Positions 32,808 through 51,041 of a stretch of 64,000 nucleotides of DNA are shown piece after piece. The first letter of the stretch is position 1. Each line of letters opens with the position of its first letter. The position numbers and the translations under genes are program-made. Source of the DNA: Bosea sp. RAC05 (GTDB lineage Bacteria; Pseudomonadota; Alphaproteobacteria; Rhizobiales; Beijerinckiaceae); assembly GCF_001713455.1 (NCBI RefSeq), contig NZ_CP016464.1:1412001-1476000 (forward strand), read 5' to 3'. A model generated the notes under the pieces. The model was not told the DNA's origin. It saw only the letters and a list, made by a program, of their open reading frames with translations, and did no database searches.

Positions 32808-34484
32808 TCACCCTTTGGCCGCCAGCGCCTCCGCGCGGATCGTCGAGAGCGACTTGGCCGGCGTGATCACCTCCGGATCGAGCAGGCAGTGAATGATCGA
32901 GGGCTTGCCCGAGGCGACCGCACGCTCGAAGGCCGGGCCGAACTGCTCGGTCGTCTCGACGCGCTCGCCATGCCCGCCAAACGCACGCGCATACGCCGCG
33001 AAGTCCGGATTCTTCAGCGTCGTCGCCGAGATGCGGCCCGGATACTCCCGCTCCTGATGCATCCGGATCGTCCCATACATGCCGTTGTCGACGACGATGA
33101 CGATGACCGGGAGGTCATACTGGACGGCCGTGGCGAAATCCTGCCCGTTCATCAGGAAGCAGCCATCGCCGGCGAAGGCCACGACGGTGCGCTCCGGATA
33201 GAGCCGCTTGGCGCCGATCGCAGCCGGCACGCCATAGCCCATCGAGCCCGAGGTCGGGGCCAACTGCGTCGCGAATTTCGTGAAGCGGTGGAAGCGGTGC
33301 ACCCAGGTCGCGTAATTGCCCGCGCCATTGCACAGGATCGCATCGTCCGGCAGGTGGTTGCGCAGCCAGCGCACCATTTCGCCCGGGTGGAAGGTGCCGG
33401 CGACAGGGGCCGGCTGCTCGCTCCAGCCGAGATAGGCTTCATGCGCCGACGCGGCGGCACCGGCCCAGGCGATCTGCTGCGGCGGATGCACCGTCTCCAG
33501 CGCGGCGCAGAAGGCGGTCGGCGAGGCATTGATCGCCAGCGTCGGCCGGTAGACCCGCCCCAGTTCTTCCGGGTCGGGATGGACATGCACCAGCGGCCGG
33601 CCCGGATTGGGAATGCCGAACAGCGAGTAGGACTGGCTCGGCATCTCCGAGAGCCGCCCGCCGACAAGGATGACGAGGTCGCTTTCCTTGATCCGCGCCA
33701 GCAGCTTGGGATTGGGGCCAATGCCGAGATCGCCGGCGAAGTTCGGGTGGTCGGCCGGAAACAGCATCTGCCGCCGGAAGGAGACGGCGACGGGCAGGTC
33801 GAAGCGCTCGGCGAAGCGCTGGAAGCGCGCGATCGCCTGCGGGTCCCAGCGCGAGCCGCCGAGGATCGCGACCGGCGACTTGGCCGCCCAGAGCCGCTTC
33901 TGCAGGTCGATCGTCTGCAGCAGGGAGGGGTGGGTTTCGGTGACCTGATAGGGCTCGGCGTCGACCGCTTCGACGACGTCGGTCAGCATGTCCTCCGGCA
34001 GCGCGATCACCACCGGGCCGGGCCGGCCCGAGGTGGCGACATGGAAGGCGCGGCTGATGATCTCGGGGATGCGCTCGGCCTGGTCGATCTCGGTCGCCCA
34101 TTTCGTCATGGTGCCGAAGACGGCGCGGTAGTCGAGTTCCTGGAAGGCCTCGCGCTCGCGCATCGAGCGGTCGATCTGGCCGACGAACAAGATCAGCGGC
34201 GTCGAATCCTGATGCGCGATATGGACGCCGGGCGAGGCGTTCGTGGCGCCAGGCCCGCGCGTGACGAAGCAGATGCCGGGCTTTCCCGTCAGCTTGCCGG
34301 CGGCCTCGGCCATCATGCAGGCGCCGCCCTCGGCCCGGCAGATCGTGACCTTCAGCTTGGCGTCGTGCAGCGCGTCGAGCACGGCGAGATAACTCTCGCC
34401 CGGTACGCAGAACGCGTCGGTCGCGCCGTGGATCAGGAGTTGGTCGACGAGGATCTGCCCGCCGGTGCGCTTGGTCGTCGTCAT
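32808..34484 (-). CDS. Thiamine-diphosphate-dependent enzyme, acetolactate synthase-like
   Basis: A ThDP enzyme of 558 residues in the acetolactate synthase/pyruvate decarboxylase family. The catalytic glutamate is Glu52 (CRAEGGACMMAEA). The ThDP-Mg site is GDGCFLMNGQDFATAVQYDLP followed by VDNGMYG. The N-terminal TGGQILVDQLLIHGATDAFCVPGESYLAVLDAL is typical of the unassigned 'acetolactate synthase catalytic subunit-like' proteins. No small regulatory subunit (ilvN) is next to it, so a biosynthetic IlvB role is doubtful. Candidates include oxalyl-CoA-, sulfoacetaldehyde- or benzoylformate-type chemistry; none can be chosen from sequence. Confidence 0.9.
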   Translation of the reverse strand: MTTTKRTGGQILVDQLLIHGATDAFCVPGESYLAVLDALHDAKLKVTICRAEGGACMMAEAAGKLTGKPGICFVTRGPGATNASPGVHIAHQDSTPLILFVGQIDRSMREREAFQELDYRAVFGTMTKWATEIDQAERIPEIISRAFHVATSGRPGPVVIALPEDMLTDVVEAVDAEPYQVTETHPSLLQTIDLQKRLWAAKSPVAILGGSRWDPQAIARFQRFAERFDLPVAVSFRRQMLFPADHPNFAGDLGIGPNPKLLARIKESDLVILVGGRLSEMPSQSYSLFGIPNPGRPLVHVHPDPEELGRVYRPTLAINASPTAFCAALETVHPPQQIAWAGAAASAHEAYLGWSEQPAPVAGTFHPGEMVRWLRNHLPDDAILCNGAGNYATWVHRFHRFTKFATQLAPTSGSMGYGVPAAIGAKRLYPERTVVAFAGDGCFLMNGQDFATAVQYDLPVIVIVVDNGMYGTIRMHQEREYPGRISATTLKNPDFAAYARAFGGHGERVETTEQFGPAFERAVASGKPSIIHCLLDPEVITPAKSLSTIRAEALAAKG

Positions 34485-34502
34485 TGCGGCGTTTCCGTTA
34501 CT

Positions 34503-34517
34503 TGACTAAGTTGGTCA
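34503..34517. promoter_or_regulatory. Candidate operator of the toxin-antitoxin pair
   Basis: TGACTAAGTTGGTCA is a 15-base near-palindrome (six of seven pairs, centre G) starting 35 bases upstream of the antitoxin ATG. Antitoxins of the Phd/YefM family repress their own promoters through such sites. This is inference from position and symmetry. Confidence 0.45.
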
Positions 34518-34537
34518 TGTTGAATGAGGAGGCGGCC

Positions 34538-34792
34538 ATGACGCGCGTCACCGTCCACGAAGCTAAGACCCATCTTTCCCGCCTGCTCGAGGAGGTCGAG
34601 AAGGGCGGCGAAGTCGTGATCTCGCGACGCGACAAGCCGATTGCGCGGTTGGTGCCGATTGAAACGGTGCAGCCGGAGGTCAGGCCGGCGCGCCGGCCAG
34701 GTCGTATGCAGGGCCTGATCGATATCGGGCCGGAGTTTTTCGACCCGCTGCCGGACGATGAACTACGGCTTTGGGAAGGCCACGGCGATTGA
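34538..34792 (+). CDS. Phd/YefM-family antitoxin
   Basis: An 84-residue protein starting MTRVTVHEAKTHLSRLLEEVEKGGEVVISRRDKPIARLVPI, a textbook Phd/YefM N-terminal DNA-binding fold. The C-terminus (GPEFFDPLPDDELRLWEGHGD) is the acidic, probably flexible part that wraps the toxin. The ATG at 34538 has GAGGAGG at ideal spacing; the frame is open 18 codons upstream without a good start. Its stop overlaps the toxin start (TTGA), a typical toxin-antitoxin arrangement. Confidence 0.93.
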   Translation: MTRVTVHEAKTHLSRLLEEVEKGGEVVISRRDKPIARLVPIETVQPEVRPARRPGRMQGLIDIGPEFFDPLPDDELRLWEGHGD

Positions 34793-35172
34793 GGCTTCTG
34801 CTCGATACCTCGACGCTCATCTGGTGGGCGAATGACAGCGCGAGCCTGAGTCGCGCCGCACGGACAGCCATCACCCGCGCTGAAATCGTGTTCGTCAGCG
34901 CGATCACGGCCATGGAGCTTTCGACGAAGCTGCGGATCGGCAAATTGCCCGAGGCCGCTTTGCTGGTGGAGGAGTTCGACCGCCGCTGCGCCGATGAGAA
35001 CTTCGTGCTGCTGCCGCTGTCCCATCGCCATGCGCTGTTCGCGGGCTCGATCCGAGGAGAGCCGCGTGATCCCTTTGACCGCATGCTGGCGGCGCAAGCG
35101 ATCATCGAGGACCTGACAGTCGTCGCCTCCGACACCGCCTTCGACGCCCTCGGCGCGCGCCGCCTCTGGTGA
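34789..35172 (+). CDS. PIN-domain toxin (VapC type)
   Basis: A 127-residue PIN-domain ribonuclease, expected to cleave RNA when freed from its antitoxin. The acidic catalytic residues are visible: Asp in LLLDTSTLIWW, Glu in ITAMELSTK, Asp in DPFDRMLAAQA and Asp in VVASDTAFD. The start is uncertain: TTG at 34789 overlaps the antitoxin stop and gives the usual short N-terminus; a TTG at 34771 is also in frame. It is paired with a Phd-type rather than AbrB- or RHH-type antitoxin, a known mix. Confidence 0.92.
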   Translation: MRLLLDTSTLIWWANDSASLSRAARTAITRAEIVFVSAITAMELSTKLRIGKLPEAALLVEEFDRRCADENFVLLPLSHRHALFAGSIRGEPRDPFDRMLAAQAIIEDLTVVASDTAFDALGARRLW

Positions 35173-35177
35173 CGCGC

Positions 35178-36365
35178 TCACCGAGCGGCTCCGCCCCAGG
35201 CCGGATCGTTCAAAACCTCGTCGGCATGCTCGCCGAGACGCGGGCTTGGACGCGGCGAGACCTGCCGGACACCGTCCATGACGATCGGGGAGGCGACGGT
35301 CGGGATCGCCCCGCCCTTCGCTTCGGTGCTGGCGAGATCGACCCGGACGCCGCGGGCAATCACTTGCGGATCGGCGAAGACCTCATCGACGGCGTTGATC
35401 GGGCCGGCCGGGACACTGACCTTCTCCAGCGCGGCCAGCAGGTCGGCCTTGGTGTAGCGCTGGCAAAGGATGTTCAGCTGCTCGGTGAGCGCGACGCGGT
35501 TCTTCACCCGCGAGCGGTTGTCGAGAAAAGCGGGGTCGTCCGCCAGTGCCGGCTCGCCCAGCACCTGGCAGAGCTTGCGCCACTGCCCGTCATTGCCGGT
35601 TGCGATGATGATGTGCCCGTCTGTAACGGGGAACACGTCGTAGGGCACGATGTTGGGGTGCGCGTTGCCCAGCCGCGGCGGCAGTTGGCCCGAGACGAGA
35701 TAGTTCAGCGCCTGGTTGCCGAGCACGGCGATCTGGCTGTCGAGCAGCGCCATGTCGAGCGTCGCGCCTTCGCCGGTGGCGTCGCGCCGGCGCAGTGCCG
35801 AGAGGATGCCGATCGTGGCGTAAAGGCCAGTATAGATGTCCGCCGTCGCATAGGCTGCCTTCATCGGCGCGCCCTCGGGCTCGCCGGTGAGCGACATCAC
35901 GCCGCCCATGCCCTGGACCAGGAAGTCGTAGCCGGCGCGCGGCGCATAGGGACCGGTCTGGCCGAAGCCCGTGACCGAGCAATAGATCAGCCGCGGATAG
36001 GCGGCCCGCAGCGAGGCGGCGTCGAGCCCGTATTTCTCCAGTCCGCCGACCTTGAAGTTCTCGACCACGACATCGGCATGGGCAGCGAGCTTTCGCACCA
36101 GCGCCTGGCCTTCGGCTGTGCGGAAATCGGCGGTGATCGAACGCTTGCCGCGGTTGGCGGAGTGGAAATAGGCCGCAGACAGATGTTCATCGCCCGCGCC
36201 CTCGACGAAGGGCGGCCCCCATTTGCGGGTGTCGTCGCCCTCGGGCGCCTCGACCTTGACGACATCGGCGCCGAGATCGGCCAGGACCTGGCCGATCCAG
36301 GGCCCGGCGAGGATGCGCGCGAGTTCGAGGACGCGCAGGCCGGCGAGGGGAGGTGTGACGGTCAT
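35178..36365 (-). CDS. Family III CoA-transferase, probably glutarate CoA-transferase (SUGCT-like)
   Basis: A CaiB/BaiF-type CoA-transferase of 395 residues. These enzymes move CoA between carboxylic acids via an aspartyl-CoA intermediate; the likely nucleophile is Asp147 in AGYDFLVQGMGG. Other family marks are LAGLRVLELARILAGPWIGQVLADLGADVVKVE and GLYATIGILSALRRRDATGEG. It follows glutaryl-CoA dehydrogenase on the same strand, so the best guess is succinyl-CoA:glutarate CoA-transferase, as in human SUGCT. Other substrates cannot be excluded. A palindromic repeat fills the gap between the two genes. Confidence 0.88.
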   Translation of the reverse strand: MTVTPPLAGLRVLELARILAGPWIGQVLADLGADVVKVEAPEGDDTRKWGPPFVEGAGDEHLSAAYFHSANRGKRSITADFRTAEGQALVRKLAAHADVVVENFKVGGLEKYGLDAASLRAAYPRLIYCSVTGFGQTGPYAPRAGYDFLVQGMGGVMSLTGEPEGAPMKAAYATADIYTGLYATIGILSALRRRDATGEGATLDMALLDSQIAVLGNQALNYLVSGQLPPRLGNAHPNIVPYDVFPVTDGHIIIATGNDGQWRKLCQVLGEPALADDPAFLDNRSRVKNRVALTEQLNILCQRYTKADLLAALEKVSVPAGPINAVDEVFADPQVIARGVRVDLASTEAKGGAIPTVASPIVMDGVRQVSPRPSPRLGEHADEVLNDPAWGGAAR

Positions 36366-36475: not shown

Positions 36476-37693
36476 TCAGAAGAACGCCTGCAGCCCGGTG
36501 ACGGCCCGGCCGAGGATCAGCGCGTGGACGTCATGCGTGCCCTCGTAGGTGTTCACCGTCTCGAGGTTCGCGGCGTGGCGCATCACATGATACTCGATCG
36601 AGATGCCGTTGCCGCCATGCATGTCGCGGGCCTGCCGGGCGATGTCGAGCGCCTTGCCGCAATTGTTGCGCTTCACGAGCGAGATCATCTCGGGGGCCAT
36701 CTTGCCCTCGTCCATCAGCCGGCCGACGCGAAGCGAGCCCTGCAGGCCGAGCGAAATCTCGGTGAGCATGTCCGCCAGCTTCTTCTGGAAGAGCTGCGTC
36801 TGGGCGAGCGGCTTGTTGAACTGCTTGCGGTCGAGCCCGTACTGGCGCGCGCGGTGGAAGCAATCCTCGGCCGCGCCCATCACGCCCCAGGAAATGCCGT
36901 AGCGCGCGCGGTTAAGGCAGCCGAACGGACCCTTCAGGCCGGAGACGTTGGGAAGCAGGTTCTCTTCCGGCACGATCACGCCATCCATGACGATCTCGCC
37001 GGTGATCGAGGCGCGAAGGGAAAGCTTGCCGCCGATCTTCGGCGCCGAAAGGCCCTTCATGCCCTTCTCGAGGATGAAGCCGCGGATCTGGTTGTCATGC
37101 GCGGCCGACTTCGCCCAGACGACGAAGACATCGGCGATCGGCGAGTTCGAGATCCACATCTTCGAGCCGGTCAGGCGATAGCCGTCGGCGACCTTCTCAG
37201 CGCGGGTCTTCATGCCCGCCGGGTCGGAGCCGGCATCGGGCTCGGTCAGGCCGAAGCAGCCGACCCACTCGCCTGAGCCCAGCTTGGGCAGGTACTTCTT
37301 GCGCTGGGTCTCGTCGCCATAGGCGTAGATCGGGTACATCACCAGCGAGGACTGGACCGACATCATCGAGCGATAGCCGGAATCGACGCGCTCGACCTCG
37401 CGGGCCACGAGCCCGTAGGACACGTAATTGGCGCCGGCGCAGCCATACTCTTCCGGGACGGTCACGCCGAGCAGGCCGAGTTCGCCCATCTCGTTGAAGA
37501 TCGAGCGGTCGGTCTTCTCGTCGAGATAGGCCTCCGAGATCCGGGGCTGCAGCTTCTCCTGCGCATAGGCACGCGCCGTGTCGCGGATCAGGCGCTCGTC
37601 CTCGGTCAACTGCTCGTCAAGCAGGAAGGCATCGTCCCAGGTGAACTCGGCCAGCTTGTGGCTGGTGCTGTGGCTGCGGGCGGCTTCGGCCAT
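36476..37693 (-). CDS. gcdH: Glutaryl-CoA dehydrogenase
   Basis: A FAD enzyme of 405 residues that oxidises and decarboxylates glutaryl-CoA to crotonyl-CoA in lysine and tryptophan breakdown. Features are [38 protein letters not shown] and the catalytic glutamate in [17 protein letters not shown]; the [14 protein letters not shown] segment is specific to this acyl-CoA dehydrogenase branch. The ATG at 37693 has GAGGGAGA upstream; an in-frame start at 37711 is weaker. Neighbours (CoA-transferase, aminoadipate-semialdehyde dehydrogenase) fit lysine catabolism. Confidence 0.95.
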
Positions 37694-37722
37694 GGTCGTC
37701 TCCCTCGTCATTCCTGCTCACC

Positions 37723-37833: not shown

Positions 37834-39354
37834 TCACGCACCCACATCGAAGCTGACGCCCTGCGCCAGCGGCAATGTCGTGCCGTAATTGAGCGTATTC
37901 GTGGCCCGGCGCATATAGGCCTTCCAGGCGTCGGAGCCGGCCTCGCGGCCGCCGCCGGTTTCCTTCTCGCCGCCGAAGGCCCCGCCGATCTCGGCGCCGG
38001 ACGGGCCGATATTGACGTTGGCGATGCCGCAGTCCGAGCCTTCGCCCGAGATGAAGGTCTCGGCCTCGCGCATGTCGAGCGTGAAGATCGAGGAGGACAA
38101 CCCGGCGCCCACCGCGTTCTGGATCGCGATCGCCTCGTCCAGCGTCTTGTACTTCATGACGTAGAGGATCGGCGCGAAGGTCTCGCGGGCGACCGGGCCG
38201 GTCTGCGCGGGCATCTCGACGATCGCCGGGCGGACATAGAAGCCCCCCGTCCCGACCGTGACGCGCTCGCCGCCATGGACGGTGCCGCCGGCCGCCTTGG
38301 CTTCCGACAGCGCCGCCTGCATGCCCTTGAAGGCGGCCTCGTCGACCAGCGGGCCGACCAGCACGCCGGCTTCGCGCGGATCACCGATTGTCACCGAGCC
38401 ATAGACCTTGATGAGCTTGGGGATCAGCGCGTCATAGACGCTCTCATGCACGATCAGGCGGCGCAGCGTGGTGCAGCGCTGGCCGGCGGTGCCCATGGCC
38501 GCAAAGGCGATGCCGCGCAGCGCGAGGTCGAGATCGGCCGACGGCGCCACGATCGCGGCATTGTTGCCGCCGAGTTCGAGGATGGCGCGGGCGAAGCGGG
38601 CGGCGAGCTTCTGGCCGACCTCCTGGCCCATCCGGGTCGAGCCCGTAGCCGAGACGACCGGCACGCGGTGATCCTGCACGAGAATGTCGCCGATCTCGCG
38701 ACCGCCGATCAGTACTTCCGACAGGCCGGCGGGCGCCTCGGGGCCGAAGCGCTTCATCGTCTTCTGGACGATCGCCTGGACGGCGAGCGCGGTCAGCGGG
38801 GTCTTCTCCGAGGGCTTCCAGACCACGCTGTCTCCGCAGACGAAGGCGAGCGCGGCGTTCCAGGACCAGACCGCGACGGGGAAGTTGAAGGCCGAGATCA
38901 CGCCGCAGACGCCGAGCGGATGCCAGGTCTCCATCATGCGGTGGTTGGGCCGCTCGGTCGCGATCGTCAGGCCGTAGAGCTGGCGCGACAGGCCGACGGC
39001 GAAGTCGCAGATGTCGATCATCTCCTGGACCTCGCCGAGGCCCTCGGACGTCACCTTGCCGGCTTCCATTGTCACCAGCAGGCCGAGATCGTTCTTGGCC
39101 GCGCGCAGTTCCTCGCCGAGCAGGCGCACGAACTCGCCACGGCGCGGCGCCGGCACCTTGCGCCAGGCCAGGAAGGCGGCGTGCGCCCGGCCGATCGCGG
39201 CCGAGGCCTCGGCGGCGCTCGTCTCCCGCAGCGTCGCGACGCTCTCGCCCGTGATGGGCGAGCGGGCGGCGAGACCGGCGGCGGCGAAGGCGGCATCCGT
39301 GACGCCGAGGCGCTTCAATAGCGCGAGCACGTCCTGGGGGAGGGGAGAGGTCAT
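37834..39354 (-). CDS. amaB: Aldehyde dehydrogenase, ALDH7 type (aminoadipate semialdehyde/piperideine-6-carboxylate dehydrogenase)
   Basis: An NAD-dependent enzyme of 506 residues of the ALDH7A1/antiquitin branch. It oxidises 2-aminoadipate 6-semialdehyde, formed from pipecolate or saccharopine, to 2-aminoadipate. The catalytic cysteine is in GTAGQRCTTLRRL and the general base glutamate in ILELGGNNAAI; MMETWHPLGVCGVISAFNFPVAVWSWNAALA and VNIGPSGAEIGGAFGGEKETGGGREAGSDAWK are strongly ALDH7-like. The start at 39354 (MTSPLPQDVLALLKRLGV) has an AGGAC upstream. It is the first gene of a run with gcdH and the CoA-transferase, divergent from a LysR gene. Confidence 0.92.
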   Translation of the reverse strand: MTSPLPQDVLALLKRLGVTDAAFAAAGLAARSPITGESVATLRETSAAEASAAIGRAHAAFLAWRKVPAPRRGEFVRLLGEELRAAKNDLGLLVTMEAGKVTSEGLGEVQEMIDICDFAVGLSRQLYGLTIATERPNHRMMETWHPLGVCGVISAFNFPVAVWSWNAALAFVCGDSVVWKPSEKTPLTALAVQAIVQKTMKRFGPEAPAGLSEVLIGGREIGDILVQDHRVPVVSATGSTRMGQEVGQKLAARFARAILELGGNNAAIVAPSADLDLALRGIAFAAMGTAGQRCTTLRRLIVHESVYDALIPKLIKVYGSVTIGDPREAGVLVGPLVDEAAFKGMQAALSEAKAAGGTVHGGERVTVGTGGFYVRPAIVEMPAQTGPVARETFAPILYVMKYKTLDEAIAIQNAVGAGLSSSIFTLDMREAETFISGEGSDCGIANVNIGPSGAEIGGAFGGEKETGGGREAGSDAWKAYMRRATNTLNYGTTLPLAQGVSFDVGA

Positions 39355-39463: not shown

Positions 39464-40378
39464 ATGAACCTCGAGATCGTGCCAGGGCGCCTCACCGTGC
39501 CGTCGCTGTCGGCTTTGGCGGCCTTCGAGGCCGCGGCGCGCCATGGCAGTTTCACCCGTGCGGCGGAGGAGCTGAGCCTGACCCAGGGCGCCGTCAGCCG
39601 GCAGGTCGCGCATCTCGAGACGGTGCTGGGTGTCGCCCTGTTCCAGCGCGCGAGACAGCGCGTTGCGCTGACGCCGGCGGGCGCCGCCTACGCCGCCGAG
39701 ATCCGCGACGGACTTTCGCGGCTGGCGGCGGCCACCGTCTCGACCATGGCCTTCCGGGGCGCGGGCGGTGTGCTGAACCTCGCCATTCTCCCGACCTTCG
39801 GCACGCGCTGGCTGATCCCGCGCCTGCCGCGCTTCACCGAGGCGCATCCCGGCATCACCATCAACTTCACCACGAAGCTCGTGCCCTTCGACTTCGCGCG
39901 CGAGCCGCTCGATGCGGCGATCCATTTCGGCGATCCGGTCTGGCCCGGCGCGCGGCTGCACCGCCTGATGGGCGAGGAGATCGTGCCCGTCGCGGCGCCC
40001 GGCCTGGTGGCGCGCCTGGGCTTGACGGAACCCGCCGACATGCTCAGGGGCTCCCTCCTGCAGCAATCGACGCGGCCCCGCGCCTGGGCGAACTGGCTGG
40101 AGCAGCAGGGGCTGCCGCCACAGCGGGCGCTGATGGGGCCGCGCTTCGAGCAGTTCGCCATGGTGTCCCAAGCGGCCGTCGCCGGTCTCGGGCTGGCCAT
40201 CGTGCCGCGTTTCCTGGTCGAGGAGGAACTCCGCTCCGGCTCGCTGGTCATTCCCTTCGATCGGCCTGTCACCGGCACGGAAGGCTACTACCTGGTCTAT
40301 CCCGAGACCCGCGCGGAACTGCCGGCGGTCGCGGCCTTCCGCGACTGGCTGCTGGCCGAATGCGAGATGGCAAGCTGA
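39464..40378 (+). CDS. LysR-type regulator (GcvA-like), likely of the lysine locus
   Basis: A regulator of 304 residues. The helix-turn-helix is LSALAAFEAAARHGSFTRAAEELSLTQGAVSRQVAHLE, and the effector domain begins near residue 95 (LNLAILPTFGTRWLIPRLPRF), typical of GcvA-type LysR proteins. The 109-base space to amaB, transcribed the other way, makes it the probable regulator of that operon. GAGAAGGG precedes the ATG. It could also control the FOXRED1-like gene that follows after 88 bases on the same strand. Confidence 0.93.
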   Translation: MNLEIVPGRLTVPSLSALAAFEAAARHGSFTRAAEELSLTQGAVSRQVAHLETVLGVALFQRARQRVALTPAGAAYAAEIRDGLSRLAAATVSTMAFRGAGGVLNLAILPTFGTRWLIPRLPRFTEAHPGITINFTTKLVPFDFAREPLDAAIHFGDPVWPGARLHRLMGEEIVPVAAPGLVARLGLTEPADMLRGSLLQQSTRPRAWANWLEQQGLPPQRALMGPRFEQFAMVSQAAVAGLGLAIVPRFLVEEELRSGSLVIPFDRPVTGTEGYYLVYPETRAELPAVAAFRDWLLAECEMAS

Positions 40379-40466: not shown

Positions 40467-41690
40467 ATGTCGTCTTCGTCCGAATCCGCCGACGTCGTCA
40501 TCTGCGGCGGAGGTGCCCTCGGCTCCTCGGTCGCCTATCACCTCGCCGCCGATCCGGGTTTCAGGGGCAGGATCGTCGTCGTCGAGAAGGACCCGACCTA
40601 TCGCTACGCCGCCTCGGCGCTGTCGGCCGCGTCGATCCGCCAGCAATATTCGAGCGCGGTGAACATTCGCATCTCGCTGCACGGCATCGATTTCCTGCGC
40701 AACATCGGCACCCGGCTCGCCGTCGAAGGCGAGGCGCCGGTCATCGATCTGCACGAGGGCGGCTATCTCTATCTGGCGGGCGAGGAGGGGGCTCCCGTGC
40801 TCGCCGCCAACCAGGCGCTGCAGGCCGCTGAGGGCGCCGATATTGCACTTTATGCTGCACCCATGCTGCGCAGCAAATTTCCCTGGATGAACACCGAGGA
40901 CATCGCCTGCGGCAGCTTCGGCGTCAGCGGCGAGGGCTGGTTCGACGGCTGGGCCTTGTTGCAAGCGTTTCGCAAGAAGGCGCGGTCGCTCGGCGTCGAA
41001 TACCGCCAGGGCGAGGTGGCCCGGTACATGGTCGAGGACGGCCGTGTCACCGGCGTCGCACTCGCCGATGGCAGCCGCATCGCCTGCGGCGCGGCGGTCA
41101 ATGCGTCGGGCACGCATGGCGCCCGCCTCGCCGCCACGGCCGGCGTGACGATCCCCGTGCGGTCGATGAAGCGCTATGTCTTCTCCTTCCTCTGCAAGGG
41201 CGAGGTCGACAACTGCCCGCTGCTGATCGACCGCAGCGGCTCCTGGTGCCGGCCCGAGGGCAAGCGCGGCAGCGACGGCCAGCTCTTCATCGGCAGCTGC
41301 TCGCCGCTGACGCCCGAGCAGGACCGGGAGTGGATCGAGACCGACGTGGATGTCGAGGATGTCGACTGGGGCTTCTTCGAGGAGGTCGTCTGGCCGGCGC
41401 TCGCCCACCGTGTCCCGGCCTTCGAGCAGATCCGGCCCGGCCGGGCCTGGGCGGGCCCCTATGACATGAACGAGCTCGACCACAACGCCATCGTCGGCCC
41501 GGCGGTCGGCCTCTCGGGTCTCTACCTCGCCAACGGCTTTTCCGGCCATGGCCTGCAGCAGGCGCCGGCGGTGGGGCGCGGTCTCGCCGAGCACATCCTG
41601 CATGGCGGCTATCGCAGCCTCGACCTGTCCGATCTCGGTCATGAGCGTATCGTCGCCGGGCAGCCGCTGCTGGAAACCAACATTATTTGA
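40467..41690 (+). CDS. FAD-dependent oxidoreductase, FOXRED1-like
   Basis: A flavoprotein of 407 residues of the DadA/sarcosine-oxidase superfamily. Its N-terminal dinucleotide motif is VVICGGGALGSSVAYHLA. Several segments recall human FOXRED1 rather than bacterial amino acid oxidases: SIRQQYSSAVNIRISLHGIDFLRNI, LRSKFPWMNTEDIA, GEGWFDGWALLQAFRKKA, WAGPYDMNELDHNAIVGP, NGFSGHGLQQAPAVGRGLAE, and the extreme C-terminus ETNII. FOXRED1 is a mitochondrial complex I assembly factor whose catalytic role is unclear. Here it sits beside aminoadipate-semialdehyde and glutaryl-CoA dehydrogenases, so oxidation of an amino or imino acid of lysine breakdown, such as pipecolate, is a reasonable guess. Start ATG at 40467; ribosome site weak. 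Confidence 0.85.
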   Translation: MSSSSESADVVICGGGALGSSVAYHLAADPGFRGRIVVVEKDPTYRYAASALSAASIRQQYSSAVNIRISLHGIDFLRNIGTRLAVEGEAPVIDLHEGGYLYLAGEEGAPVLAANQALQAAEGADIALYAAPMLRSKFPWMNTEDIACGSFGVSGEGWFDGWALLQAFRKKARSLGVEYRQGEVARYMVEDGRVTGVALADGSRIACGAAVNASGTHGARLAATAGVTIPVRSMKRYVFSFLCKGEVDNCPLLIDRSGSWCRPEGKRGSDGQLFIGSCSPLTPEQDREWIETDVDVEDVDWGFFEEVVWPALAHRVPAFEQIRPGRAWAGPYDMNELDHNAIVGPAVGLSGLYLANGFSGHGLQQAPAVGRGLAEHILHGGYRSLDLSDLGHERIVAGQPLLETNII

Positions 41691-41701: not shown

Positions 41702-42208
41702 ATGATCGACACGAGCTATGTCCGCACCATGGCGCGCTACAACGCCTGGCAGAACCGCAGCCTCTTCACGGCGGCAGCGACGCTCGACGACGCGGCGCGG
41801 CGGCAGGATCGCGGCGCCTTCTTCGGTTCGATCCACGGCACGTTCTGCCATCTGCTCTGGGGCGACCGGATGTGGCTTTCGCGCTTTGCCGGCACGCCCA
41901 AGCCGACCCAGCGCATCCATGAATCCGCCGACCTCGTCGCCGACTGGGACGATCTCGTCGCCCAGCGGCAGGCCTTCGACGGTACGATCGCTGAATGGGC
42001 GCGTGACCTGTCGGCCGAATGGCTGGCCGGCGATCTCGTCTGGTTTTCCGGCGCGATGCAGCGCGAGATGCGCAAGCCCCGCGCGCTGCTGGTCGTCCAG
42101 CTGTTCAACCACCAGACCCATCATCGCGGCCAGGTCCATGCCATGCTGACGGCGGCCGGCGCGAAGCCGGACGACACCGATCTGATGCTGCTGGAGCCGG
42201 AAGCCTGA
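41702..42208 (+). CDS. DinB family protein
   Basis: A 168-residue four-helix-bundle protein of the DinB/YfiT superfamily. Metal-binding histidines are in HGTFCHLLWGDRMW and in LFNHQTHHRGQVHAML. The aromatic-rich N-terminus MARYNAWQNRSLF is typical. Members include metal-dependent thiol transferases (bacillithiol, mycothiol and others), but this subgroup is uncharacterised; the name comes from a DNA-damage-induced Bacillus gene. It starts 11 bases after the FOXRED1-like gene and is probably co-transcribed, so a link to that enzyme is possible. Confidence 0.92.
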   Translation: MIDTSYVRTMARYNAWQNRSLFTAAATLDDAARRQDRGAFFGSIHGTFCHLLWGDRMWLSRFAGTPKPTQRIHESADLVADWDDLVAQRQAFDGTIAEWARDLSAEWLAGDLVWFSGAMQREMRKPRALLVVQLFNHQTHHRGQVHAMLTAAGAKPDDTDLMLLEPEA

Positions 42209-46580: not shown

Positions 46581-48422
46581 TCAGAACGCCTCTTCCCAGT
46601 TGCGGCTCAGCCGCATCGCCGAGTTGATCAGCCCGACATGGGAGTAGGTCTGGGGAAAATTCCCCCAGAGTTCGCCGGTCTCCAGATCGGCGTCCTCCGA
46701 CAGCAGGCCGAAGCTGTTGCGTCGCTTCAGGATTCGGCCAAACAGCGCCTTGGCTTCCTCGGTCTTGCCGATGGCATGCAGTGCATCGACATACCAGAAG
46801 GCGCAGATCAGGAAGCCGGTGTGCATGAAGCCGAAATCGTCCTGCGTCGCGTAGCGCAGCAGCAGGTCGCCGCGCGTCAGGTCGCGGCCGATCGCCTCGA
46901 CGGTGGCGACGAAGCGCGGATCGTCGGGCTTCAGGAAGCCGAGCTCGGAAAACAGCAGGAGCGTGGCGTCGAGTTCGGTCCCGCCGAAGGTCGAGACCAG
47001 ATGGCCCTTGTCCTCGTTCCAGATGCGCTCGAGGATGACGGCCTTGACCCGCTTGGCCTCGCCCTTCCAGTAATCCCTGCGGTCGGCGCGGCCGAGCGTG
47101 CCGGCGATGCGGGCGAGACGGTCGCATGCCGCCCAGCACATCACGCTGGAGAAGGAATGCACCGCCTCCTTCTCGCGCAGTTCCCAGGGGCCGGCGTCGG
47201 GCTTGTCGAAATAGGCGATCGCCAGTTCGCCCATGCGTTCGAGCTGGCCGAACAGCGCTTCCTTCCCGGGCTTGATGAGGCGCTGGTCGAAGAAGGCATG
47301 CGTCGCCGCGAGCACGACGGCGCCATAGCCGTCGTTCTGGACCTGGATCGCCGCTCCATTGCCGAAGCGCACCGGCTGGTGGCCGCGATAGCCTGCGAGG
47401 TTGCCGGCCTCGAATTCGTCGAGCGTGCCGCCCCGCGTGATCGGATAGAGCGGCGGCAGATGCTCGGCGCCGCTTTCGGTGAAGCTGTCGACGATGTTGG
47501 TGATGAAGCCGAGATAATCCTCCATCGTTCGCGTTGTGCCGAGCCGGTTCAGGGCATGCACCACGAAATAGGCATCGCGCAGCCAGCAGAAGCGGTAATC
47601 CCAGTTGCGCTGCGTGCCCGGCGCCTCGGGGATCGACGTCGTCAGAGCGGCGACAATGGCGCCGGTCTCCTCGAAGGCGCACATCTTGAGCGTGATCGCG
47701 GCCCGGATGACCTCGCGCTGGTACTCGAAGGGCAAGGACAGCGAGCGCACCCAGTCGCGCCAGTAGTCGGTGGTCTTGTCGAGGAAGGCGCGCGAGGTTT
47801 CCTCGATCTCGGCCCGCAGCGCCTCGTCGGAGCCGATGAAGAACGAGAATGGCCGGTCGACCGCGAAGGCCACCCCATCGACGACATAGGAGATCGGCGC
47901 GTCCGTGGTCAGGCGGATGGTCTGGTCGGCGCCGACGAAGCGGACATGGTTGGAGCCGCGTGTGATCTCGGCGGGCTCCTCGCCGATGCCGAGGGAGGGC
48001 TTCACGACGACGCGGATCCGTGGCCGCCCGGAGATTCGGCGGACGCGACGGACGATCTGTGGCGGCCGGAAAAAGCGCTCATAGCGCACGAAGCGTGGCG
48101 CGAAATCGAGGACCTCGATGGCGTTGCCATGGTCGTCGGATAGTACCGAGGACAGGATCGCGGTGTTGTCGAGGTAAGACTGCTCGCAGCGCGTCATGCC
48201 GACCAGTTCGATCGCGAAGACGCCCTTGCGCGGCATCGCATCACCGTCGCCGGGCTGGTTGTCGATCAGCGCGCAGAAGACCGGGTCGCGGTCGAAGCGC
48301 GGGAAGCAACCCCAGACGATCCGGGCGCGCCGGTCGATGAGCGCCGCGATCGAGCAGTTGCCGATCACGCCGAGGTCGAGCGAGGCCGAATGCGGCCCCG
48401 CAGGCATCGTCGAAACAGTCAT
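46581..48422 (-). CDS. Glycoside hydrolase family 15 protein
   Basis: A protein of 613 residues with an N-terminal beta-sandwich region and a C-terminal (alpha/alpha)6 barrel of family GH15. Marks are GTQRNWDYRFCWLRDAYFVVHALNRLG, VQNDGYGAVVLAATHAFFD, MCWAACDRLARIA and the end GNFPQTYSHVGLINSAMRLS. Bacterial members act as glucoamylase-like enzymes or trehalases. It is four bases from otsB on the same strand, so a role in trehalose turnover is likely here. It has no signal peptide and is probably cytosolic. Confidence 0.93.
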   Translation of the reverse strand: MTVSTMPAGPHSASLDLGVIGNCSIAALIDRRARIVWGCFPRFDRDPVFCALIDNQPGDGDAMPRKGVFAIELVGMTRCEQSYLDNTAILSSVLSDDHGNAIEVLDFAPRFVRYERFFRPPQIVRRVRRISGRPRIRVVVKPSLGIGEEPAEITRGSNHVRFVGADQTIRLTTDAPISYVVDGVAFAVDRPFSFFIGSDEALRAEIEETSRAFLDKTTDYWRDWVRSLSLPFEYQREVIRAAITLKMCAFEETGAIVAALTTSIPEAPGTQRNWDYRFCWLRDAYFVVHALNRLGTTRTMEDYLGFITNIVDSFTESGAEHLPPLYPITRGGTLDEFEAGNLAGYRGHQPVRFGNGAAIQVQNDGYGAVVLAATHAFFDQRLIKPGKEALFGQLERMGELAIAYFDKPDAGPWELREKEAVHSFSSVMCWAACDRLARIAGTLGRADRRDYWKGEAKRVKAVILERIWNEDKGHLVSTFGGTELDATLLLFSELGFLKPDDPRFVATVEAIGRDLTRGDLLLRYATQDDFGFMHTGFLICAFWYVDALHAIGKTEEAKALFGRILKRRNSFGLLSEDADLETGELWGNFPQTYSHVGLINSAMRLSRNWEEAF

Positions 48423-48426
48423 GGGG

Positions 48427-49218
48427 TCATCCCTGGTGGAAATGTGAAGCCGTCAGGCTGCCGCGATCGGCGGCGTCGAGCAGGATCGCACGCAGCGCCG
48501 TGGGAGAGGCGATCCGCAGCCTGGCCCGCGTCTCGCCGTCGCCGATGCGGATCGACAGTCCTCCGAGCGCGTTGACCGCCTCGAAGCCGTGCTCGTCGGT
48601 GATGTCGTCGCCGATGAAGACCGGCAGCCGGCCGGCATAGGGGGGCTCCTGCATGAGCTGCGCGATCGCCGCGCCCTTGCTGGCCGAAGCCGGAACCAGC
48701 TCGGCGACCGCCTTGCCCTCCTGCAGGCGGACCGTGGGGCCCAGGCGCTCGGCCAAGGCACTCATCAGGGCGAGTGCCTCGTCCTTGAGCTGCGGTGCCA
48801 GGCGCCAATGCAGCGCGATCGAAAGGTCCTTGTTCTCGACGATGACGCCGACATGGCTGTTGGCGAAGCGCACCAGATTGCGCAGCGCGTCCCGCATCGG
48901 CGCCGATGCTTCCGTGTGGCTGTGAATCCGACCGCCGAGCCGGATCTCCGCCCCATGCAGCGCGGCCACATCGAACCGGTAGGGATCGAGCACGCCGTCG
49001 ATGAACGAGACCGGCCGTCCCGAGACGAGCGCGAGCGCACCCGACAGGCTGCCGCGCAGGGCCTCCAGCGCCGCCGGCACGCGCCGGTCGAGGCGCACAT
49101 CGGCGGGCGAGGGGGCGATCTCCACCAGCGTGCCGTCGAAATCGAGAAACAGCGCGATCGCGCGCCGGTCATCCGAAAGGGGGGCGCCGTTCGCTGGTTC
49201 GGGATGCGTCAGGGTCAT
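48427..49218 (-). CDS. otsB: Trehalose-phosphatase
   Basis: Removes phosphate from trehalose 6-phosphate. The protein has 263 residues of the HAD superfamily. The nucleophile Asp is in ALFLDFDGTLVEI, motif II in LVSGRP, the lysine in ASASKGAAI, and the magnesium aspartates in FIGDDITDEHGFEAV. ATG at 49218 gives the usual N-terminus; the frame is open upstream but not coding-like. Divergent from otsA and followed by the GH15 gene. Confidence 0.95.
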   Translation of the reverse strand: MTLTHPEPANGAPLSDDRRAIALFLDFDGTLVEIAPSPADVRLDRRVPAALEALRGSLSGALALVSGRPVSFIDGVLDPYRFDVAALHGAEIRLGGRIHSHTEASAPMRDALRNLVRFANSHVGVIVENKDLSIALHWRLAPQLKDEALALMSALAERLGPTVRLQEGKAVAELVPASASKGAAIAQLMQEPPYAGRLPVFIGDDITDEHGFEAVNALGGLSIRIGDGETRARLRIASPTALRAILLDAADRGSLTASHFHQG

Positions 49219-49445
49219 CGGGACAGTCCGGGTCGAATCCTGGTTCTGCTTCGGGTGAATGGCCTCTCTCCCCGCCTCGATCCTGGCATGGCGGCCCGGT
49301 GGCGCCGCCATGCGTCCGCCCGCCGCCGGGTGAGCGGCTGCCGGCCTGCGGAAACAATACGCCCCGCCGGGCGTTCTGTTCCTGCCCCTGTCGAATTTCG
49401 GGCGGCTGCGGCCGTCGGGCCGCGACAAAGGAGGGTTGTTCGGCC
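49219..49445. promoter_or_regulatory. Divergent otsB/otsA promoter region
   Basis: A 227-base space between the divergent trehalose genes, expected to contain both promoters. GGAGG (about 49430-49434) is the ribosome site of otsA, at a slightly long spacing. I cannot point to a confident promoter sequence. Confidence 0.35.
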
Positions 49446-51041
49446 ATGCGCCTCGTCGTCGTTTCGAACCGCGTCACGATTCCCGAGCGAAACGAAAAGG
49501 CGGCTGCGGGCGGGTTGGCGGTGGCGCTGCGCGAGGCGCTGGAGAAACGGGGCGGCCTCTGGTTCGGCTGGAGCGGCGAGGTGGCGGAGGCCAGCGCGCC
49601 GCCGCGCATCGCCGAGCGCGGCAACGTCACCTATGCCGTCACCGATCTGACCGAGGCCGAGCGCCAATCCTATTATCTCGGCTTCTCCAACCGCGCGCTC
49701 TGGCCGCTGATGCATTACCGGCTCGGGCTCACCGAGTTCTCGCGGGTCGATTATGCCGGCTATCTCGCGGTCAATCGCCGCTTCGCCAAGGCGCTGGTCG
49801 GCCTGCTCCGGCCCGACGACGTCATCTGGATCCACGACTACCACCTGATTCCGCTGGCGGCCGAATTGCGTCGCCGCGGCGTGACCAACCGGATCGGCTA
49901 TTTCCACCACATCCCCTGGCCGCCGGCCGAGATGTTCGGGGCGCTGCCCTTCGCCGCCACCCTCGCGAGCACGATCATGGCCTACGACCTCGTCGGCCTG
50001 CAGACGGCGACCGACGTCTCGAACCTGATCGGCTGTCTCTCGGCGATGAGCGGCGCCCGCAGCGACGGACGCAAGGTCCGGGTCGGACGGCGCGAAACCA
50101 TCATCCAGCCCTTCCCGATCGGCATTGATGTCGAGGCCTTCCGCAAGCTCGCCGCGGCCTCGGTCCGGTCCGCGACGACGCCACTGAAGACGACGCGCCA
50201 GTCGCTGGGCGAGCGCAAGCTGGTGATCGGGGTCGACCGCCTCGATTACTCGAAGGGCATCGTCCAGAGGCTGGAGGCCTTCGGTCACTTCCTGCGCAGC
50301 CATCCCGACCAGCGCGGCCGCGTCGGCCTGCTGCAGATCGCACCGCCCTCGCGCTCGGACGTGCCCGAATATGCCGAGCTCGACCGGCAGTCCGACGAGG
50401 TCGCGGGGCGCCTCAACGCGGCGCTGGGCGAGTTCGACTGGACGCCGATCCGCGTCGTGAAGAAGGCCTATTCGCGCAACGCTCTGGCCGGCTTCTACCG
50501 TCGCGCCCAGGTCGGCCTCGTCACGCCGATGCGGGACGGGATGAACCTCGTCGCGAAGGAGTACATCGCGGCGCAGGACCCGGCCGATCCCGGCGTTCTG
50601 GTGCTGTCGCGCTTCGCCGGCGCCGCCCACCAGATGGGCGAGGCATTGATCGTCAACCCTTACGACCTGCATGAGGTCGCCGAGGCCATCCGCACCGCAC
50701 TCGCCATGCCGAAATCGGAACGGATCCGACGCTTCGAGCGCCTCTATGCGACGATCGAGGCGACCGACATCGGCTGGTGGACGCAGCGCTATCTCGATGC
50801 GCTGTCGGACATCGAGGTCACGCCGTCCGATAGCCCGTCGCCGCGCAACGAGACCAGCACCGTCGTGACGTCGCGCCCTGCCGTGACCCCGGCTGCGAAA
50901 AGCGGCCGGCCCAAGCCGCCGCGCCGCAAGGCCGGCGCCCTTGATGACGCCCCAAAACCCGGCCAGGGGCGGGCCAGCCGGACTCCGGCGAAGACCGGTC
51001 GGGCACCCGCTTCCCGGCGGCCTGCGTCACCGTCCGGCTGA
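49446..51041 (+). CDS. otsA: Alpha,alpha-trehalose-phosphate synthase
   Basis: Joins glucose from UDP-glucose to glucose 6-phosphate, giving trehalose 6-phosphate. The protein has 531 residues; the GT20 core ends near residue 460. Motifs are [10 protein letters not shown], the glycine-rich [46 protein letters not shown], and [18 protein letters not shown]. The last 70 residues are a Pro/Ala/Lys/Arg-rich, probably disordered tail not needed for catalysis. It works with otsB next door. Confidence 0.96.

What the first reader, a model, noticed from the sequence alone, without database searches (positions are those of the whole stretch)
40467..41690. FOXRED1-like flavoprotein encoded within a lysine-catabolism locus
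Many segments including the C-terminal TNII resemble human FOXRED1, a mitochondrial complex I assembly factor of unknown enzymatic role. Its gene here lies beside ALDH7-type and glutaryl-CoA dehydrogenase genes. This raises the idea that the ancestral alphaproteobacterial enzyme oxidised an amino or imino acid in lysine breakdown, which would inform what FOXRED1 does. In Pseudomonas, a DadA-like pipecolate oxidase (AmaA) is partnered with AmaB in the same way.
Basis: partly seen in the sequence, partly recalled or inferred. Interest (0 to 1): 0.75.

Follow-up and report, generated by a model that had tools for sequence, protein, structure and literature searches.

The report
FOXRED1-like flavoenzyme in lysine-breakdown locus
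A soil bacterium carries a close relative of the human mitochondrial protein FOXRED1 inside a gene cluster for breaking down the amino acid lysine, but the human protein seems to come from a different branch of that family, so the cluster hints at, rather than reveals, what the human protein does.

Summary
Confirmed: ORF 40467-41690 (+) encodes a 407-aa FAD oxidoreductase, collinear with FOXRED1 to the C-terminal NII (42% identity) and by far the best FOXRED1 match in its genome (261 vs 51 bits). It lies beside an L-piperidine-6-carboxylate dehydrogenase (P6C DH, ALDH7 type), glutaryl-CoA dehydrogenase, a CoA-transferase, a TPP enzyme and a LysR gene.

Among the nearest relatives the lysine link is real: 17 of 17 Bosea-level and 44 of 63 other named loci hold at least one of the four genes; it recurs on Burkholderiaceae plasmids. 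It is not the family rule: 6 of 84 loci from an even class sample. Mammalian FOXRED1 branches with relatives that lack lysine neighbours, but AU tests are mixed (p 0.674, 0.435, 0.018). The protein is not AmaA.

Most likely it is an FAD dehydrogenase of a lysine-derived imino or amino acid: L-pipecolate first, 2-aminoadipate close behind. The sarcosine-oxidase Arg52 position, a substrate-carboxylate anchor, is Arg in 199 of 200 bacterial rows (one gap) but Cys, Trp or His in 20 of 102 FOXRED1 rows with a letter there, human included. Human FOXRED1 may have lost the ancestral chemistry.

The parts
40467..41690 (+). FOXRED1-type FAD-dependent oxidoreductase (DAO family), 407 aa; the gene of the finding
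   Evidence: AlphaFold2 model mean pLDDT 94
39464..40378 (+). LysR-family (GcvA-like) regulator, 88 bp upstream of the FAD gene on the same strand, divergent from the P6C dehydrogenase gene
   Evidence: NF008352 298 bits over cut-off 288; a match of 50% identity or more in 17 of 17 Bosea-level and 13 of 63 other named loci
37834..39354 (-). L-piperidine-6-carboxylate / 2-aminoadipate-6-semialdehyde dehydrogenase (ALDH7 type)
   Evidence: NF050084 813 bits over cut-off 730; solved antiquitin / alpha-aminoadipic semialdehyde dehydrogenase relatives; start codon placed
36476..37711 (-). glutaryl-CoA dehydrogenase
   Evidence: 627.6 bits to 3gnc and 594.5 to human 1siq; no NCBIfam equivalog passes its cut-off
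35178..36365 (-). family III CoA-transferase, probably acting on glutarate
   Evidence: best NCBIfam NF052585 succinate--glutarate CoA-transferase 589.8 bits, below its cut-off of 750; best solved relatives 4ed9 (CaiB/BaiF family, 475.8 bits), formyl-CoA transferase type 289.6 and succinate--hydroxymethylglutarate CoA-transferase 285.3 bits
32808..34484 (-). thiamine-pyrophosphate enzyme (PRK08199 type), function unknown; proposed 2-oxoadipate decarboxylase
   Evidence: NF006052 909.9 bits over cut-off 539; present within the fetched flanks in 48 of 80 named loci; substrate is inference

Best explanation
The gene encodes an FAD-dependent dehydrogenase of the FOXRED1 type that works in lysine breakdown in this bacterium (Bosea-like). 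Most likely it oxidises a lysine-derived cyclic imino acid, L-pipecolate, to delta1-piperideine-6-carboxylate, which opens to 2-aminoadipate semialdehyde and is oxidised by the neighbouring P6C dehydrogenase to 2-aminoadipate. Electrons go to ETF or quinone rather than to oxygen. The remaining genes of the locus would carry the C6 skeleton through 2-oxoadipate and glutarate to glutaryl-CoA and crotonyl-CoA. Shown: sequence family, predicted fold, gene linkage, conserved Arg at a substrate-binding position. Inferred: substrate, electron acceptor, order of steps.
Against: 17 named loci, all titled Microvirga, carry a saccharopine-dehydrogenase-domain gene between P6C dehydrogenase and FAD genes, perhaps lysine 6-dehydrogenase, which would already supply P6C; no NCBIfam model names it. 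AmaA-type pipecolate oxidation exists in alphaproteobacteria: loss of the 262-kb plasmid of Phaeobacter inhibens makes L-pipecolate pile up (PMC5653290, passages); the FAD oxidoreductase I found on part of that plasmid is 40% identical to AmaA and has no real match to the window protein (that it is the gene named in the paper was not shown). A paralogue elsewhere in the own genome matches the AmaA model at 341.5 bits (cut-off 600), not far below the Phaeobacter protein's 425. The gene stands beside GCDH, CoA-transferase or TPP enzyme without a P6C dehydrogenase close by in Stappia, Xanthobacter and Lutibaculum. Sarcosine oxidase Lys348 is Gln364 here. The missing Lys265 is weak evidence for a dehydrogenase, as AmaA and the other DAO rows of that alignment lack it too.
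Confidence: 0.36

Rival explanations
1. It is an FAD-dependent L-2-aminoadipate dehydrogenase. It deaminates the product of the P6C dehydrogenase to 2-oxoadipate, in place of the aminotransferase of other lysine operons; the TPP enzyme then decarboxylates 2-oxoadipate to glutarate semialdehyde, which goes through glutarate, CoA-transferase and glutaryl-CoA dehydrogenase.
For: Rhizobial plasmid loci pair P6C dehydrogenase with an aminotransferase and HglS (NF049974 750.9 vs 550 bits for the one scanned). No match of 35% or more to that HglS lies in the 164 named and class-sample loci, and to that aminotransferase only in L155 and L191, which lack the lysine genes; other aminotransferase types were not sought. 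HglS was not found in the own genome (no positive control). FAD and TPP genes are neighbours in L071, L075, L081, L101 and L178, the last three without P6C dehydrogenase in the stretch. Microvirga loci may get P6C from another enzyme.
Against: The nearest folds act on secondary or tertiary amines (substrates recalled). The TPP enzyme has no known substrate. Bosea would need another P6C source; two families searched gave none, though an AmaA-type paralogue is a candidate.
Confidence: 0.3
2. It oxidises another lysine-related N-substituted amino acid, such as saccharopine or another opine, as flavin-containing opine dehydrogenases and fungal saccharopine oxidases (recalled) do.
Against: The only Sacchrp_dh_C protein of the own genome is a homospermidine synthase; 7fgp ranks well below L-proline dehydrogenase and sarcosine oxidase beta subunits.
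Confidence: 0.12
3. It is an ancestral respiratory (complex I) assembly or housekeeping flavoprotein, and its place beside lysine genes reflects shared descent of one gene order.
For: Most family members in the class sample have no lysine neighbours (6 of 84 do). An Mrp/NUBPL-type gene lies directly upstream in four MAG loci. TAL-TPP order is shared between Bosea and Microvirga, so part of the linkage is inherited.
Against: The same gene types recur in unlike orders, also on Burkholderiaceae plasmids and in class-sample locus L176 outside the window clade; 211 of 289 class genomes lack the gene at E 1e-40, which is unlike a general complex I factor.
Confidence: 0.15

Closest known systems
Mitochondrial FOXRED1 (complex I assembly factor)
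   Same: DAO fold, full-length collinearity, 38-45% identity by method and species, GFSGHGLQQ-type motif, C-terminal NII
   Different: Sits in another part of the family tree in all three trees, AU tests mixed; human and several other mammals lack the Arg58 equivalent; complex I role not testable here
AmaA L-pipecolate oxidase (Pseudomonas; relatives in Leisingera, Phaeobacter)
   Same: DAO protein encoded next to a P6C dehydrogenase in P. aeruginosa and Leisingera
   Different: 25% identity and 28 bits to the window protein; window protein has no NF050086 match at E 0.001, the P. aeruginosa protein passes that model; Arg58 position is Asn, Gln364 position is Thr. One paper's legend gives the names amaA and amaB the other way round (PMC6667623)
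L-proline dehydrogenase beta subunit PH1363 (1y56_B)
   Same: Top match by sequence and by Foldseek, IRQQ motif
   Different: 23-25% identity; partner-subunit genes were not sought
Monomeric sarcosine oxidase / human PIPOX
   Same: Arg52 equivalent kept; Tyr55 position, by eye from the alignment, Tyr or Phe
   Different: Lys348, Lys265 and Cys315 are not kept; PIPOX itself was not aligned here
Pseudomonas gcdR-gcdH-gcoT glutarate module (PMC6667623, passages)
   Same: LysR gene, glutaryl-CoA dehydrogenase and CoA-transferase together
   Different: Here joined with P6C dehydrogenase, a TPP enzyme and the FOXRED1-type gene

Membership tests
FOXRED1 type (DAO subfamily) | DAO domain over the whole protein | tested here: met
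   PF01266 residues 9-375, 170 bits
FOXRED1 type (DAO subfamily) | Best FOXRED1 match in the genome, far above other DAO paralogues | tested here: met
   261 vs 51 bits with P0173
FOXRED1 type (DAO subfamily) | Groups with FOXRED1 to the exclusion of other DAO subfamilies | tested here: met
   108 rows including FOXRED1 on one side of a 100* branch, five other DAO rows on the other (quick tree, long outgroup branches)
Mitochondrial FOXRED1 lineage | Sister to, or inside, the eukaryotic FOXRED1 branch | tested here: inconclusive
   All three trees place FOXRED1 elsewhere; AU p 0.674, 0.435, 0.018. Only mammalian FOXRED1 was available
Mitochondrial FOXRED1 lineage | Role in complex I assembly | not testable with these tools
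   Needs mutants
AmaA L-pipecolate oxidase | Sequence orthology to AmaA | tested here: not met
   28 bits, 25%; NF050086 not among the 10 families matched at E 0.001; seven stretches elsewhere in the genome score 65 bits or more with AmaA
AmaA L-pipecolate oxidase | Gene beside a P6C dehydrogenase | tested here: met
   NF050084 neighbour over cut-off
AmaA L-pipecolate oxidase | Oxidises L-pipecolate | not testable with these tools
   Needs an assay
Monomeric sarcosine oxidase / PIPOX | Arg52, Lys348, Lys265, Cys315 (sarcosine oxidase numbering) | tested here: not met
   Arg kept; the others Gln, Phe, Gly
L-piperidine-6-carboxylate dehydrogenase (neighbour) | NCBIfam NF050084 cut-off | tested here: met
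   813 vs 730 bits
Succinate--glutarate CoA-transferase (neighbour) | NCBIfam NF052585 cut-off | tested here: not met
   589.8 vs 750 bits, still its best match

The most novel reading that the evidence does not exclude
FOXRED1-type flavoproteins began as amino- or imino-acid dehydrogenases, and one bacterial branch is the missing deaminating enzyme of an undescribed lysine route (P6C dehydrogenase, FAD-dependent 2-aminoadipate dehydrogenase, TPP-dependent 2-oxoadipate decarboxylase, glutarate CoA-transferase, glutaryl-CoA dehydrogenase). Human FOXRED1 keeps the fold and FAD but has lost the substrate-carboxylate Arg, as have other mammals, and now acts in complex I assembly without that chemistry.
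Probability: 0.2. Interest if true: 0.75.

Novelty: new variant of a known kind. Interest (0 to 1): 0.5.

Why it matters
[quoted passage not shown] A bacterial relative with a short list of likely substrates, encoded with its pathway, gives a testable starting point. The comparison also raises a simple question about the human protein: can it still bind an amino-acid carboxylate after the change of a residue that is Arg in every bacterial row with a letter there? Apart from FOXRED1, the locus suggests a lysine route with a TPP enzyme of unknown substrate.

Tried and rejected
Rejected or weak: AmaA orthology; L-2-hydroxyglutarate oxidase, as no such NCBIfam model is among the 10 matches (that it is a DAO enzyme is recalled); an HglS module in the own genome (no positive control). 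The Mrp/NUBPL-type gene upstream of the gene in four MAG loci looked like a complex I link, but it is one clade and a housekeeping family (recalled), so I give it little weight. Neighbours of the FOXRED1-side gene L157 (GlnD, MurJ, a class I tRNA synthetase, Nfu) look like housekeeping order. ETF genes in L179, L181, L187 sit among beta-oxidation genes (scanned in L181), so their link to the FAD gene may be loose. The AU value of 3e-60 is void: I had left a row of the window's own genus (L274) out of the held group; one search repeats it correctly (p 0.018).

The 84 class loci come from 77 genomes; several are cut by contig ends and one FAD gene is partial (L224). Neighbour calls rest on tblastn floors that I chose (ALDH7 55, GCDH 60, CoAT 50, TPP 48% identity, 30% of the length). 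Only mammalian FOXRED1 could be had; some of the 120 rows are isoforms or unnamed, and the lists show the best 120 of 7991 and of 7297 proteins. The window clade is mostly Hyphomicrobiales by record title, with a few others (for example L065, L067, L082). The 113-, 76- and 66-row trees are sets I picked; the first left out many near-copies and some class loci.

Literature: searches, of which I saw listings of up to 30 rows. I saw no paper linking FOXRED1-type proteins to lysine breakdown, but only seven papers were opened, by passages. Lemire's 2015 paper on FOXRED1 evolution was seen only as a reference. A 2015 proposal that FOXRED1 is a dual-function protein of complex I assembly and amino acid metabolism was likewise seen only through PMC6723710, so the general idea of amino-acid chemistry in FOXRED1 is already in print.

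Full report
WHAT IS THERE. The stated ORF exists (40467-41690, +, 407 aa from the ATG). It is a DAO-family FAD oxidoreductase that none of the 10 NCBIfam models it matches claims at its cut-off (best soxB, 48 of 529 bits). Its likeness to FOXRED1 runs over the whole length: 42% identity to human FOXRED1 typed from recall, borne out by database records (P0122 Homo sapiens isoform 8, P0173, P0218, P0230). In its genome it is the clear FOXRED1 match (261 bits, next 51) among 52 DAO-domain matches. JGI gives the FOXRED1 name to 12 of the 120 listed homologues. The nearest named relatives are Bosea.

THE LOCUS. On the minus strand lie, in the direction of transcription, P6C dehydrogenase (NF050084, over cut-off; the only one in the genome over it), glutaryl-CoA dehydrogenase, a CoA-transferase whose best model is succinate--glutarate CoA-transferase though below that cut-off, and a TPP enzyme (PRK08199 type); a Phd/PIN gene pair sits between the last two on the other strand. 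Divergent from these is a GcvA-like LysR gene, with the FAD gene 88 bp behind it.

HOW FAR THE LINK GOES. A scan of named genomes gave the 80 best relatives with flanks of up to 10 kb. With the floors, 17 of 17 Bosea-level loci hold all four lysine-type genes; of the 63 others 44 hold at least one (P6C dehydrogenase 39, TPP enzyme 31, glutaryl-CoA dehydrogenase 15, CoA-transferase 12), 35 two or more, and 19 none. Leaving out the 17 Microvirga loci, which have an extra saccharopine-dehydrogenase-domain gene, 27 of 46 hold at least one. Orders differ: ALDH7-TPP-FAD in Azorhizobium, ALDH7-GCDH-CoAT-TPP-FAD (with small genes between) in Chthonobacter, ALDH7-GCDH-FAD in Pseudovibrio, CoAT-FAD in Xanthobacter, FAD-TPP in Lutibaculum. 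ALDH7-FAD pairs also stand on two Burkholderiaceae plasmids, one followed by a GntR gene and ETF genes. In an even draw from the class 78 of 289 genomes hold a family member; of the 84 loci fetched outside the window genome 6 hold any of the four genes, one holds two or more. Of the 4 with P6C dehydrogenase, L141 and L142 fall in the window clade, L144 is the contig of named L083, and L176 lies outside that clade. P6C dehydrogenase occurs in 70 of 289 genomes and both in 27 (odds ratio 2.1, Fisher p 0.02). Some other family members sit with oxoprolinase or with ETF and beta-oxidation genes. The lysine link is thus a property of some branches, not of the family.

WHERE FOXRED1 FALLS. Quick tree, 113 rows: the family including mammalian FOXRED1 is separated from five other DAO proteins (100*); FOXRED1 groups with 11 rows without lysine genes (82), and the window's clade of 43 rows is separate (99*). 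Careful tree, 76 rows: FOXRED1 with L150, L157, L174, L190 (95/98*), window clade of 30 rows 100/100*. Careful tree, 66 rows, after a phylum-wide search with echidna FOXRED1: FOXRED1 with L150, L157, L159, L174, L189, L254 (81/86, not starred); a 96/93* branch parts these from the window clade. The rows next to FOXRED1 differ among trees (L189/L197 in the first, L190 in the second), so that detail is unstable. AU tests of FOXRED1 plus window clade: p 0.674, where the held tree was even better than the free one, 0.435 and 0.018. By score, echidna FOXRED1 matches other bacterial genes better (345 bits in G041, 339 in G091, 338 in G528) than the window gene (285); but of these G041 and G528 lie on the window's side of the 96/93* branch, which speaks against a simple split. 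My reading: a different branch, likely but not shown.

WHAT IT PROBABLY DOES. Two substrates fit. Pipecolate: fold neighbours, position beside P6C dehydrogenase, and two families searched for another P6C source in the own genome gave none, while DpkA-family proteins are there. Against it: a paralogue in the same genome matches the AmaA model at 341.5 bits, and AmaA-type proteins are tied to pipecolate in Phaeobacter (PMC5653290, passages). Aminoadipate: a possible lysine 6-dehydrogenase already in the Microvirga loci, neighbourhood with the TPP enzyme without P6C dehydrogenase in three loci (L081, L101, L178), and no rhizobial-type aminotransferase beside it in lysine-type loci. The replaced Lys265 and ETF neighbours suggest a dehydrogenase, weakly.

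VERDICT. The step from there to human FOXRED1 is weak: a different branch in the trees, mostly non-lysine neighbourhoods in the family, and a lost carboxylate Arg in human.

Noticed in passing
window 40638-40640 (codon of Arg58), compared with FOXRED1 rows P0121-P0240: Arg58 (sarcosine oxidase Arg52 position) is Arg in 199 of 200 bacterial rows, one gap, but Cys in Old World monkeys and apes with human, Trp in several rodents and a possum, His in some other primates and a sengi.
   Followed up: partly
window 34484-35172 (+): A Phd/YefM antitoxin gene and a PIN-domain gene lie between the TPP and CoA-transferase genes on the opposite strand.
   Followed up: no
window 32808-34484 (-): TPP enzyme of the PRK08199 type, best solved relatives acetolactate synthases, within the flanks of 48 of 80 named loci; substrate unknown.
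   Followed up: partly
L041, L047, L049, L062, directly upstream of the FAD gene: An Mrp/NUBPL-type P-loop NTPase gene; NUBPL is a complex I assembly factor in mitochondria (recalled). One clade of MAGs, perhaps chance.
   Followed up: partly
17 Microvirga loci among L039-L064: Saccharopine-dehydrogenase-domain protein (392 aa in L055) between P6C dehydrogenase and the FAD gene, perhaps lysine 6-dehydrogenase; no NCBIfam model names it.
   Followed up: partly
window 41717-42208 (+): DinB-family gene directly downstream of the FAD gene, found in the 17 Bosea-level loci and in L037.
   Followed up: no
L222 and L223 (genomes of 1.2-1.3 Mb): Small genomes keep a shortened family member of about 367 aa with odd composition.
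   Followed up: no
window 46584-51038: A glycoside hydrolase family 15 gene, a trehalose-phosphatase and a glycosyltransferase family 20 gene (trehalose-6-phosphate synthase type, recalled) lie together.
   Followed up: no
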